Shown one piece after another: positions 59,693 through 64,000 of a stretch of DNA of 64,000 bases. This DNA is from a virus. The position numbers and the translations under genes were made by a program. Below the pieces are notes generated by a model that ran no database searches, had not been told where the DNA came from, and was given only the letters and a program-made list of their open reading frames with translations. How positions within the stretch are numbered: the stretch's first letter is position 1; each line of letters opens with the position of its first letter. The stretch spans positions 1 to 64,000 of IMG/VR virus record IMGVR_UViG_3300028840_000789, one strand, 5' to 3'.

Positions 59693-59778
59693 TTTATATG
59701 AGATTTAATGTCAATCGGTTGTCTGGCACACCACATACACTTACAACTTTTTTAATGAGGTGAACAGTCAAACGATTG

Positions 59779-59785
59779 TACTTTA
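59779..59785 (+). promoter_or_regulatory. TACTTTA box before micro-ORF
   Basis: TGTACTTTAGGTATACTTACTATAAAT precedes the ATG at 59806 by 27 nt and matches the box seen upstream of 59368, 59979 and 60973. Confidence 0.35.
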
Positions 59786-59805
59786 GGTATACTTACTATA
59801 AATAT

Positions 59806-59868
59806 ATGTACTACAATCCAGATGGTACTATTAATGTTACTGGTGATCGCAGTTGGGACGCTAAGTAA
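59806..59868 (+). CDS. Possible 20-residue micro-protein
   Basis: A 21-codon frame, MYYNPDGTINVTGDRSWDAK, runs from an ATG preceded by the shared TACTTTR box and an AT-rich leader, and ends in TAA. It is polar and has no membrane segment. The leader match is the main support. The surrounding 59693-59978 stretch contains no longer gene. Confidence 0.4.
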   Translation: MYYNPDGTINVTGDRSWDAK

Positions 59869-59877
59869 CTAATAGTA

Positions 59878-59945
59878 CTTGATATAGATGTGACACATCT
59901 AACGATGCACATCGACTCAAGCAGGTGAAGTATAGTAACCTGCTT
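59878..59945 (+). ncRNA. Three-hairpin element
   Basis: Adjacent inverted repeats are visible: TAGATGTG-A-CACATCTA (59885-59901, 8 bp), CGATG-CA-CATCG (59903-59914) and AAGCAGGT...ACCTGCTT (59919-59945, 8 bp, 11-nt loop). CTTGA (59878-59882) can also pair with TCAAG (59917-59921) to close the first two. The last hairpin abuts GTTTTACTTTG, so it may serve as terminator for the upstream unit while a promoter starts. DNA-level operator use is also possible. Confidence 0.4.
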
Positions 59946-59949
59946 GTTT

Positions 59950-59956
59950 TACTTTG
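59950..59956 (+). promoter_or_regulatory. TACTTTG box
   Basis: TTTTACTTTGTATCTCACTAAC lies 29 nt before the ATG at 59979 and directly after a hairpin. An almost identical arrangement, hairpin then TTTTACTTTG and CACTAACATACA, occurs at 60937-60964. Confidence 0.45.
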
Positions 59957-59978
59957 TATCTCACTAACTAACATACAT

Positions 59979-60359
59979 ATGATACATGAAAAATGGTTTG
60001 CTATAATCGCAGCAGCTGCTTTTATAGCTCTTGTTACAATCCTTGGTACTCAATGTGAAAGCAGGAGTGGCAAGCTTTCTAAAGCTCAAGCAATGGAGGG
60101 TGTTACACACCGAGCTGAATTTGGTGTCAGTGATTATACATTGCATCTTGATGATACTATTATTGGTCATGAGAACATACTTGGTATGTCTCAAAATGAA
60201 GAGATGATAGTATTGATCAAGCAAGAAGACAGTGTCGAGTACACATGTACTTTATTTGATGATGAGTTTACTGCTGTTTATCACATACCACGTCATGGTA
60301 ATCCTGTGCTTGCAGCGTGTATTGCTCATGTTCCTGTTGAGTGGCATAAGACAGAGTAA
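59979..60359 (+). CDS. Membrane-anchored or lipoprotein-like early protein
   Basis: The ATG at 59979 is used because a shared leader (TTTTACTTTG... CTAACATACAT) ends there; a longer in-frame start would contain the leader. The 126-residue product has a hydrophobic segment at 7-23 (FAIIAAAAFIALVTILG) ending near TQCES, which might serve as a lipobox. The rest is a small soluble domain with three further Cys. It probably acts at the inner membrane or periplasm. No family is recognised. Confidence 0.65.
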   Translation: MIHEKWFAIIAAAAFIALVTILGTQCESRSGKLSKAQAMEGVTHRAEFGVSDYTLHLDDTIIGHENILGMSQNEEMIVLIKQEDSVEYTCTLFDDEFTAVYHIPRHGNPVLAACIAHVPVEWHKTE

Positions 60360-60378: not shown

Positions 60379-60492
60379 ATGTTACTCTTCTTTATTGCCT
60401 ACAGCTTGCTAGGCTTGCTGTGGATGAGTGCATCTGTTCTTGATGCACCTTATGGAATTGAAACTCCAAATGGTTTAATCATAATCAAATGA
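60379..60492 (+). CDS. Micro-membrane protein (37 aa)
   Basis: A 37-residue frame starts MLLFFIAYSLLGLLWMSASV and ends PNGLIIIK. One hydrophobic helix (about 1-18) is followed by a polar end. It begins 19 nt after the previous stop, and its stop lies 4 nt before the next micro-ORF, which fits an operon. Small single-helix proteins often modulate host membrane enzymes. Real status is likely but unproved. Confidence 0.5.
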   Translation: MLLFFIAYSLLGLLWMSASVLDAPYGIETPNGLIIIK

Positions 60493-60496
60493 AAAC

Positions 60497-60613
60497 ATGG
60501 AAACTCTAAAGAAAGTGCGTGTTGGTAAGGAGTTACGCAAGAAGCAGATTGAAATAATCCTAGTCATTTCTACGATGCTCGGATTATTTAGCCTTGCGGT
60601 AGCTCAACTATAA
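60497..60613 (+). CDS. Micro-membrane protein (38 aa)
   Basis: A 38-residue frame starts METLKKVRVGKELRKKQIEI and ends with the helix IILVISTMLGLFSLAVAQL: a basic N terminus followed by one transmembrane helix, as in type II small membrane proteins. It starts 4 nt after the previous micro-ORF and is followed after 17 nt by the structured RNA. No family is recognised. Confidence 0.5.
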   Translation: METLKKVRVGKELRKKQIEIILVISTMLGLFSLAVAQL

Positions 60614-60618
60614 ATTAT

Positions 60619-60675
60619 ATGATGAAAATGATCAGCGATACTTTAACTAGTATCGCTGGTTTCACCGTCGAATGA
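60619..60675 (+). CDS. Possible leader peptide (18 aa)
   Basis: MMKMISDTLTSIAGFTVE is encoded from an ATG 5 nt after the preceding stop, over the first hairpin (60631-60660) of the structured RNA and ending in the next stem. A leader peptide of attenuator type is possible. It may equally be chance within the RNA. Confidence 0.25.
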   Translation: MMKMISDTLTSIAGFTVE

Positions 60676-60938
60676 TCACCTCAACGTGGTGACGGTGTCT
60701 AGTAGCCCATTACGCGGTGAAGCTAACGATCATAAGGGAAAAGGATGTCTATCAGTTAGTGATAATTCCGTACTAAAAGCACTAACGATACTAGCCTTAC
60801 CGCTAGACAGGATCTAGTGAGTAGACTAATAACTATGCAAGCGTATACGCTGTTAGTCATAGTAAGTCGCTGTTTGATCAGCAGAGATGTAAGCAAGGTG
60901 ACACATGGTCGGACATGATGTGAGACATCCTTTCCCTT
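60631..60938 (+). ncRNA. Large structured RNA, unassigned class
   Basis: No gene of size fits this 308-nt stretch, but helices are strong. Closing helix: 60734-60750 with 60923-60938, 15 or more bp with one bulge, pairing across 172 nt. Others: 60631-60641/60650-60660 (11 bp); 60663-60667/60693-60697; 60714-60720/60797-60803 (7 bp, crossing the closing helix, so a pseudoknot); 60751-60761/60780-60789; 60832-60837/60858-60863 around GCG-TATA-CGC; 60869-60872/60879-60882; 60902-60906/60918-60922. TTTTACTTTG follows directly. I know no matching tRNA, tmRNA, RNase P or group I core. Confidence 0.6.
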
Positions 60939-60939
60939 T

Positions 60940-60946
60940 TACTTTG
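60940..60946 (+). promoter_or_regulatory. TACTTTG box after structured RNA
   Basis: CCCTTTTACTTTGAAACTTTC is followed by CACTAACATACAATATACT and the ATG at 60973 (33 nt from the box). The U-rich start could also act as the 3' end of the RNA. Confidence 0.45.
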
Positions 60947-60972
60947 AAACTTTCACTAACATACAATATACT

Positions 60973-61167
60973 ATGAAAGAGTTCAGACTATATACTAGAG
61001 ACGATGGTGCTACGTGTCACATTAAGTATGCTGATCAATTGGCACCTAGTGTAATTTACAAATGTACTGCTCCTGCTACTCATGTCATTGGTAAGGGCAG
61101 ACTACGTTGTAAAGAGCACTTCGAGAAATGGTTGAAAAAACAATCACGTAAACATAATACACTATGA
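60973..61167 (+). CDS. Small basic Cys/His protein
   Basis: The product has 64 residues: MKEFRLYTRDDGATCHIKYA and later CTAPATHVIGKGRLRCKEHF followed by a basic tail. Three Cys and several His (C15, C31, C46, H49) could form a small zinc site. It overlaps the next gene by 4 nt (ATGA). Function unknown; nucleic-acid or protein binding is plausible. Confidence 0.6.
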   Translation: MKEFRLYTRDDGATCHIKYADQLAPSVIYKCTAPATHVIGKGRLRCKEHFEKWLKKQSRKHNTL

Positions 61168-61475
61168 GTAGATTTCATATTCAATTAGACGAACATAGAT
61201 CAATGTCTTATGGTTATGATCGTCCACTTCAAGGATACTTCATTCAGATATATGATGAACGATATGCTTGGAAAGAAGAGAATACACCAGAAGAAAATGA
61301 GGCAGCGGAAGCTGTTGATTGGACTGGTGAAGGTGAGGTAGAGAGTTATGCTACTAATAATATGCTTCTTGCAAAGAAGGTTGTTAGTCGTAGCAGGATA
61401 CTTGAGATACTTGAGGAGAATGGTGTTCCAGAAGATCACCTACATCAAGTGGCTCTTGATCTACCAATCGTATAA
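61164..61475 (+). CDS. Unknown early protein
   Basis: The product has 103 residues. It begins MSRFHIQLDEHRSMSYGYDR then PLQGYFIQIYDERYAWKEEN, a beta-rich start, with an acidic centre (NTPEENEAAEAVDWTGEGEV) and a helical C terminus (SRILEILEENGVPEDHLHQV). Similar small proteins appear in phage and plasmid accessory regions as far as I can recall, without known function. It is coupled to the upstream gene by ATGA overlap. Confidence 0.62.
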   Translation: MSRFHIQLDEHRSMSYGYDRPLQGYFIQIYDERYAWKEENTPEENEAAEAVDWTGEGEVESYATNNMLLAKKVVSRSRILEILEENGVPEDHLHQVALDLPIV

Positions 61476-61481
61476 GAAAAC

Positions 61482-61552
61482 AGGAGTGATGTGCCTGCTG
61501 GCAGTACCGCAATTATTTCCATAATGCCTGATGGCCAGTCGCCTTCACTCCT
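61482..61552 (+). ncRNA. Compact 71-nt hairpin RNA
   Basis: An 8-bp outer helix AGGAGTGA (61482-61489) / TCACTCCT (61545-61552) encloses CTGGC (61498-61502) / GCCAG (61534-61538) and ATTAT-TTCC-ATAAT (61512-61525). It fills the 108-nt gap between two genes. It could be a regulatory leader, a small RNA or an RNase-type processing stem. There is no U-tract after it. Confidence 0.45.
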
Positions 61553-61583
61553 TAACAAAGAAACTAACTTAAACAAATATACT

Positions 61584-63916: not shown

Positions 63917-64000
63917 AAAGAAAAATGAATTAGCAACAAAACATGTTACTGTAATTGGTGGTACTCTCATTAACCTACGAGATGCGGATACTTTTGGTGA
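63909..64000 (+). CDS. Partial gene at right edge
   Basis: The start at 63909 overlaps the previous TGA (ATGAGTGA). Thirty codons are visible: MSEKKNELATKHVTVIGGTL then INLRDADTFG, cut by the window edge. The VTVIGGTL segment is beta-prone. Nothing more can be said. Confidence 0.5.
   Translation, partial: MSEKKNELATKHVTVIGGTLINLRDADTFG

What the first reader, a model, noticed from the sequence alone, without database searches (positions are those of the whole stretch)
60631..60938. 308-nt structured RNA of unrecognised class
A long-range 15-bp helix (60734-60750 with 60923-60938), at least six local hairpins and a 7-bp pseudoknot-type pairing (GCGGTGA 60714-60720 with TTACCGC 60797-60803) occupy an early intergenic gap without a fitting gene. 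ATGATC (60672-60677) with GATCAT (60728-60733), and TCTAG with several CTAGA partners, give mutually exclusive folds. The helix ends at TTTT followed by a promoter-like box, so a discrete transcript is plausible. It does not match tRNA, tmRNA, RNase P or group I intron landmarks I can check by eye.
Basis: seen in the sequence. Interest (0 to 1): 0.82.

Follow-up and report, generated by a model that had tools for sequence, protein, structure and literature searches.

The report
Self-cutting RNA between phage genes
The unrecognised RNA contains what looks like a small self-cutting RNA of the hepatitis-delta kind, lying between two early genes of a phage related to crAss-like phages and followed by a stretch whose two ends pair with each other; whether it really cuts has not been tested.

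Summary
A descriptor with theta-type L3 had 0 hits in 1.4 Gb of random sequence. A model built without the window hits this site first (21.7 bits, E 0.0005). Rfam's RF02682 scores it 17.5 bits, below its gathering score 44. Upstream lies a 12-bp hairpin; immediately downstream a 16-bp helix closes a 205-nt segment whose interior is no more stable than shuffles. Best explanation: the ribozyme splits an early polycistronic transcript between two small genes. Against it: no variant homologue was found, so no covariation test; P1.1 is imperfect, while 10 of 10 control loci have it whole; the predicted minimum fold is an inactive one. Catalysis is inferred, not shown. No tRNA was found in the record. 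Theta ribozymes away from tRNAs are already published, so this is a new member of a known kind.

The parts
60497..60613 (+). upstream small gene (38 aa), whose transcript would be cut behind it
   Evidence: ORF list; no PHROG match
60631..60660 (+). 12-bp hairpin followed by UU before the predicted cleavage site; inferred to cap the upstream RNA's 3' end
   Evidence: z -8.3, 0 of 200 shuffles as stable. The terminator scan lists this stem only as a minus-strand terminator-like site
60663..60733 (+). HDV-like, theta-type ribozyme; cleavage predicted before C60663 (or before C60665 if P1 is 5 bp)
   Evidence: descriptor, model R2 built without the window, RF02682 17.5 bits below gathering
60663..60669 (+). 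P1 5' strand CACCGUC, pairs with GACGGUG 60691-60697
60672..60677 (+). P2 5' strand AUGAUC, pairs with GAUCAU 60728-60733
60678..60690 (+). P3 ACC/GGU with L3 UCAACGU
60691..60697 (+). P1 3' strand GACGGUG
60714..60721 (+). possible decoy strand GCGGUGAA, 8 bp with UUCACCGU 60661-60668 across the cleavage site
   Evidence: -11.7 kcal/mol duplex; inference
60722..60727 (+). J4/2 GCUAAC with the presumed catalytic C60723
60728..60733 (+). P2 3' strand GAUCAU
60734..60938 (+). 205-nt segment closed by a 16-bp helix (60734-60750 with 60923-60938, one bulge)
   Evidence: z -4.6, 0 of 200 shuffles as stable; interior z -0.76
60797..60803 (+).
   Evidence: 22% of 500 shuffles as long
60937..60977 (+). 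leader repeated at 59947-59990
   Evidence: 80% over 45 columns, E 3e-4; the next best matches in the record have E 0.3 or more
60973..61167 (+). downstream small gene (64 aa)
   Evidence: ORF list; no PHROG match; only copies of this phage found in viral contigs

Best explanation
60663-60733 is an HDV-like, theta-type self-cleaving ribozyme at the junction of two small early genes. It is transcribed with the rightward genes, folds into the nested double pseudoknot and cuts itself 5' of P1. The upstream mRNA then ends in a hairpin with a 2',3'-cyclic phosphate; the downstream RNA starts with a 5'-OH and the compact ribozyme, followed by the helix-closed segment and the next gene. The effect is to split one transcript into two units of separate stability. 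Shown by sequence: ribozyme anatomy, hairpin, closing helix. Inferred: catalysis, the cleavage site, that both genes share a transcript, and the role in mRNA processing. The function of the 205-nt segment is not established; most simply it shields the new 5' end or steers the ribozyme's folding.
For: P1, P2, P3, L3 and the J4/2 C are all present in order. The descriptor gives 2 hits in 38.4 Mb and 56 in 1.4 Gb of random sequence, none of the 56 with theta-type L3. RF02682, which owes nothing to this window, has its best placement exactly here, 60663-60733. A model from 8 other phage ribozymes puts 60663-60697 first in the window, E 0.0005 against 0.69 for the next. The same core occurs behind tmRNA or tRNA genes in other phages. 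It lies in a gene-free gap on the coding strand, between a stable hairpin and the next gene.
Against: The descriptor was written after seeing the site, and the 8 model sequences were fetched with a 16-mer taken from it, so the core is partly circular; the R2 match covers P1 to P1' only (model positions 9-46 of 78). RF02682 stays far below gathering. With a 7-bp P1 only 1 of 2 P1.1 pairs forms, with a 5-bp P1 both; 10 of 10 control loci (8 distinct sequences) have P1 of 6-7 bp and both pairs. No clear local P4. The minimum fold is an inactive one, 5.7 to 9.4 kcal/mol better than forced P1+P3 at the lengths from 60722 on, while P2 adds about -4.5. No variant homologue, so no covariation. The upstream hairpin is terminator-like on the minus strand, not the plus strand. 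The swap control of the catalytic C was not clean: A, G and T versions gave 5, 2 and 1 hits, all at loci already hit with C, by a shift of register.
Confidence: 0.55

Rival explanations
1. A relic or very slow ribozyme: the HDV-like fold is homologous but no longer cuts usefully, and the gap's role lies in the hairpin and the closed segment.
For: Imperfect P1.1 and no clear P4, unlike 10 of 10 control loci; a more stable inactive fold.
Against: P1, P2, P3, L3 and the J4/2 C are intact, which drift would be expected to spoil.
Confidence: 0.2
2. A discrete non-coding RNA, about 60663-60940: the ribozyme makes its 5' end and the closing helix with TTTT its 3' end; the RNA itself is the product, acting on phage or host.
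For: The closing helix starts directly behind P2' and ends at TTTT; a leader for the next gene begins there.
Against: Interior no more structured than shuffles; the terminator scan lists no plus-strand terminator here; no homologue.
Confidence: 0.15
3. An inserted 205-bp element: the closing helix is a pair of terminal inverted repeats and has no RNA role.
For: 16-bp inverted repeats at the very ends around a featureless interior.
Against: No second copy in the own record; in phage records only two matches of 28-29 nt at E 1 and 4; no target duplication seen by eye at the flanks.
Confidence: 0.05
4. Chance: no ribozyme at all, only a gap with a hairpin and an inverted repeat.
For: Below Rfam gathering; no covariation available; a loose descriptor hit that is likely false also occurs in L011 and in L244.
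Against: 0 hits with theta-type L3 and 56 loose hits in 1.4 Gb of random sequence, about 0.005 expected for this window; placement by RF02682.
Confidence: 0.05

Closest known systems
Theta ribozymes (Kienbeck et al. 2024, PMC10879173)
   Same: Minimal HDV-like layout, theta-type L3, C at the start of J4/2, phage of probable Bacteroidota hosts. The paper also counts 526 hits away from tRNAs, 493 of them in non-coding regions, with unknown function.
   Different: No tRNA in the record; imperfect P1.1; long stretch without a clear P4; a helix-closed segment directly behind.
Rfam RF02682 HDV-F-prausnitzii
   Same: Best library match, spanning the whole model at 60663-60733.
   Different: 17.5 bits against a gathering score of 44. 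Among 5 control loci carrying such ribozymes only L034 reaches gathering, 46.2 bits.
HDV ribozyme RF00094 and other HDV-like ribozymes
   Same: Same nested double-pseudoknot plan (recalled).
   Different: RF00094 is not among the 5 matches up to E 10 in this stretch.

Membership tests
HDV-like ribozyme | P1 of about 6-7 bp with P1' directly behind P3' | tested here: met
   CACCGUC/GACGGUG, 7 of 7 pairs
HDV-like ribozyme | P2 pseudoknot closing behind J4/2 | tested here: met
   AUGAUC/GAUCAU, 6 of 6 pairs
HDV-like ribozyme | P3 and L3 of the family type | tested here: met
   ACC/GGU and UCAACGU; the one L3 base where it differs also varies between controls
HDV-like ribozyme | catalytic C at the start of J4/2 | tested here: met
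   C60723 in GCUAAC; the role of that C is from the paper
HDV-like ribozyme | two-pair P1.1 | tested here: inconclusive
   1 of 2 pairs with a 7-bp P1, 2 of 2 with a 5-bp P1; 10 of 10 control loci have both with 6-7 bp
HDV-like ribozyme | self-cleavage in Mg2+ | not testable with these tools
   needs an in vitro assay
tRNA-associated theta ribozyme | cleavage site within 5 nt of a tRNA 3' end | tested here: not met
   no tRNA or tmRNA called in 1-64000 or 56000-67686 (L152)
Rfam RF02682 | gathering score 44 bits | tested here: not met
   17.5 bits
HDV-like ribozyme with a conserved downstream segment | paired changes in relatives | not testable with these tools
   the only copies found are identical over the 371-nt query

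The most novel reading that the evidence does not exclude
A gated ribozyme: the decoy strand GCGGUGAA (60714-60721) first masks P1 and the cleavage site, and only after the polymerase has made the downstream segment does UUACCGC (60797-60803) capture the decoy and let the ribozyme cut, so that cleavage of the early transcript is timed by transcription of the helix-closed segment.
Probability: 0.1. Interest if true: 0.75.

Novelty: new member of a known kind. Interest (0 to 1): 0.45.

Why it matters
Published theta ribozymes are explained by making tRNA 3' ends; the several hundred away from tRNAs have no known function. This one lies at a gene-gene junction with a strong hairpin just upstream, which makes an mRNA-splitting role directly testable in vitro. 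It also shows that such a ribozyme can sit far below Rfam's gathering score and be missed.

Tried and rejected
Rfam at gathering: nothing in the window. DNA relatives in phage records: only two matches of 28-29 nt, E 1 and 4. The neighbouring 103-aa protein: no match in phage records at E 1. Relatives through flanking genes: only two contigs, 100% identical in the proteins searched and over the 371-nt query. In one search one of the 13 flanking proteins (59979 gene) was translated out of frame by my slip, so its tblastn line is void; one search had it in frame. Terminase relatives: 7 loci; the best 80 of 299 were kept, including those 7. I gave 46 of the 80 to a search with model R1, which contains the window's own sequence: 0 of 46 records matched at E 0.01; many are fragments, and the tool warns that an empty answer shows nothing. 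The two nearest (63-64% terminase, L079, L080) are fragments that would end short of this place if gene order is kept. A 15-bp helix behind the ribozyme of L034/L062/L064 was rejected: AT-rich, inside an ORF, z -0.99. Literature: the listings show no paper whose title or abstract start treats theta ribozymes between mRNAs of crAss-like phages; only these searches back that. Supplements could not be opened, so I do not know whether this site is already in the theta paper's tables.

Full report
What was checked. The gap 60614-60972 holds no convincing gene. 60631-60938 is more stable than all of 100 shuffles (z -6.2). Taken apart: the hairpin 60631-60662 has z -8.3 and the closed segment 60734-60938 z -4.6, but its interior 60751-60922 only z -0.76, and 60663-60733 only z -0.82 (that program does not model pseudoknots). 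Two elements carry the stability, and the many hairpins are not above chance. The closing helix heads the list of 6 inverted repeats in 56000-67686; random 64-kb sequences hold 0.85 helices of 15 bp or more within 300 nt on average.

What it is. Rfam at gathering gives nothing in the window. In permissive mode the best of 5 matches in 60400-61050 is HDV-F-prausnitzii at 60663-60733, 17.5 bits, E 1.1. Following that lead, the HDV-like elements are present in order: P1 CACCGUC/GACGGUG, P2 AUGAUC/GAUCAU, P3 ACC/GGU, L3 UCAACGU and J4/2 GCUAAC; P1.1 is imperfect and P4 unclear. A scan for CACCTCNACGTGGTGA in viral contigs returned 68 stretches. Ten meet the full descriptor at the motif: two are this phage (L012, L020), eight are others (L034, L041, L048, L062, L064, L066, L068, L070). 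L071 fits with a 6-bp P1. The other 57 do not meet it. L034, L062 and L064 carry the same ribozyme sequence, so the nine other loci give seven distinct ones. In 7 of the 9 a T-arm-like sequence precedes the ribozyme by eye; ARAGORN calls an adjoining gene in 3 of 9, two tmRNAs (L034, L062) and one tRNA-Lys (L070).

How sure. The descriptor gives 2 hits in 38.4 Mb and 56 in 1.4 Gb of random sequence, 0 with theta-type L3; it was written after the site was seen. In 152 real sources (1.62 Mb) it gave 17 hits: 8 at this phage's copies, 8 at the other ribozymes and 1, in L011, that looks false. Replacing the catalytic C by A, G or T in the descriptor still gave 5, 2 and 1 hits, all at loci already hit with C, because the J4/2 rule allows a shift; so that control is not clean. 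A model from 8 sequences without the window puts 60663-60697 first, 21.7 bits, E 0.0005, next best E 0.69, but covers only P1 to P1'. L168, also outside that model, scores 42.4 bits, so this site is a divergent member.

Weak points. With a 7-bp P1, one of two P1.1 pairs forms; with a 5-bp P1, both. All 10 control loci (8 distinct sequences) have P1 of 6-7 bp and both pairs. GCGGUGAA 60714-60721 can pair with UUCACCGU 60661-60668 across the cleavage site (-11.7 kcal/mol), and the predicted minimum fold is inactive. The gap to forced P1+P3 is 7.9 kcal/mol when transcription has reached 60722, 9.1 at 60752, 6.1 at 60808, 5.7 at 60890 and 9.4 at 60945; P2 adds about -4.5. The capture strand UUACCGC is not above chance. 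Gating is therefore speculation, kept as the boldest reading. The upstream hairpin is listed as terminator-like only for the minus strand, so its role as a 3' cap is an inference.

Genome context. The record is 67,686 bases. Its capsid protein matches 97 phage records, the best rows mostly crAss-like phages at 28-31%; its terminase matches 157, the best rows being Flavobacterium phages at about 35%; PHROGs names both. A 5331-codon gene is open in table 11, so recoding is unlikely. No tRNA was called. The only contigs with this locus are identical over the 371-nt query, so covariation cannot be tested with what I hold.

Comparison with what is known. Kienbeck et al. 2024 (PMC10879173; abstract, Results, one Methods section and Discussion read) describe theta ribozymes: 742 of 1281 occurrences (58%) tRNA-associated; 526 not, 493 of these in non-coding regions, over 96% in the sense of the closest gene, function unknown; about 90% of predicted hosts Bacteroidota. 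Four tRNA-linked examples cut in vitro and lost activity with C to U. This site fits the non-tRNA group by anatomy. It fails the tRNA-associated definition and RF02682's gathering score; but of 5 control loci scanned, only L034 passes that score, so the score is a poor judge for this group.

Verdict. A likely HDV-like ribozyme that most plausibly splits an early phage transcript. New member of a known kind, with an unusual helix-closed segment behind it whose meaning stays open.

Noticed in passing
L034 249-689 (also L062): A phage tmRNA (249-620) is directly followed at 621 by an HDV-like ribozyme that reaches RF02682's gathering score (46.2 bits): the ribozyme would make the 3' end of a tmRNA. 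L064 carries the same ribozyme, but no tmRNA is called there.
   Followed up: partly
L068 2362, L168 396, L071 about 882: HDV-like ribozymes not directly behind a called tRNA; in L068 and L168 the cleavage site follows a shared AACGAAGCCC, perhaps the end of an unnamed structured RNA between tRNA genes. L068 also holds a GOLLD RNA (275 bits).
   Followed up: no
59947-59990 and 60937-60977: A leader of about 45 nt occurs twice, 80% identical, each time directly behind a helix and in front of a small early gene.
   Followed up: partly
61482-61554: Intergenic stretch folding into one long imperfect hairpin closed by AGGAGUGA/UCACUCCU; the folded piece 61470-61560 has z -3.55, 0 of 200 shuffles as stable.
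   Followed up: no
59695-59952: Another gene-poor structured gap, z -3.5, 0 of 200 shuffles as stable, ending in a hairpin CAAGCAGGU/ACCUGCUUG plus UUUU.
   Followed up: no
66600-66719 and 64680-64799 of the record (the window ends at 64000): Lowest fold z-scores of a plus-strand scan from 58500 on, -4.0 and -3.5 with 25 simulations each.
   Followed up: no
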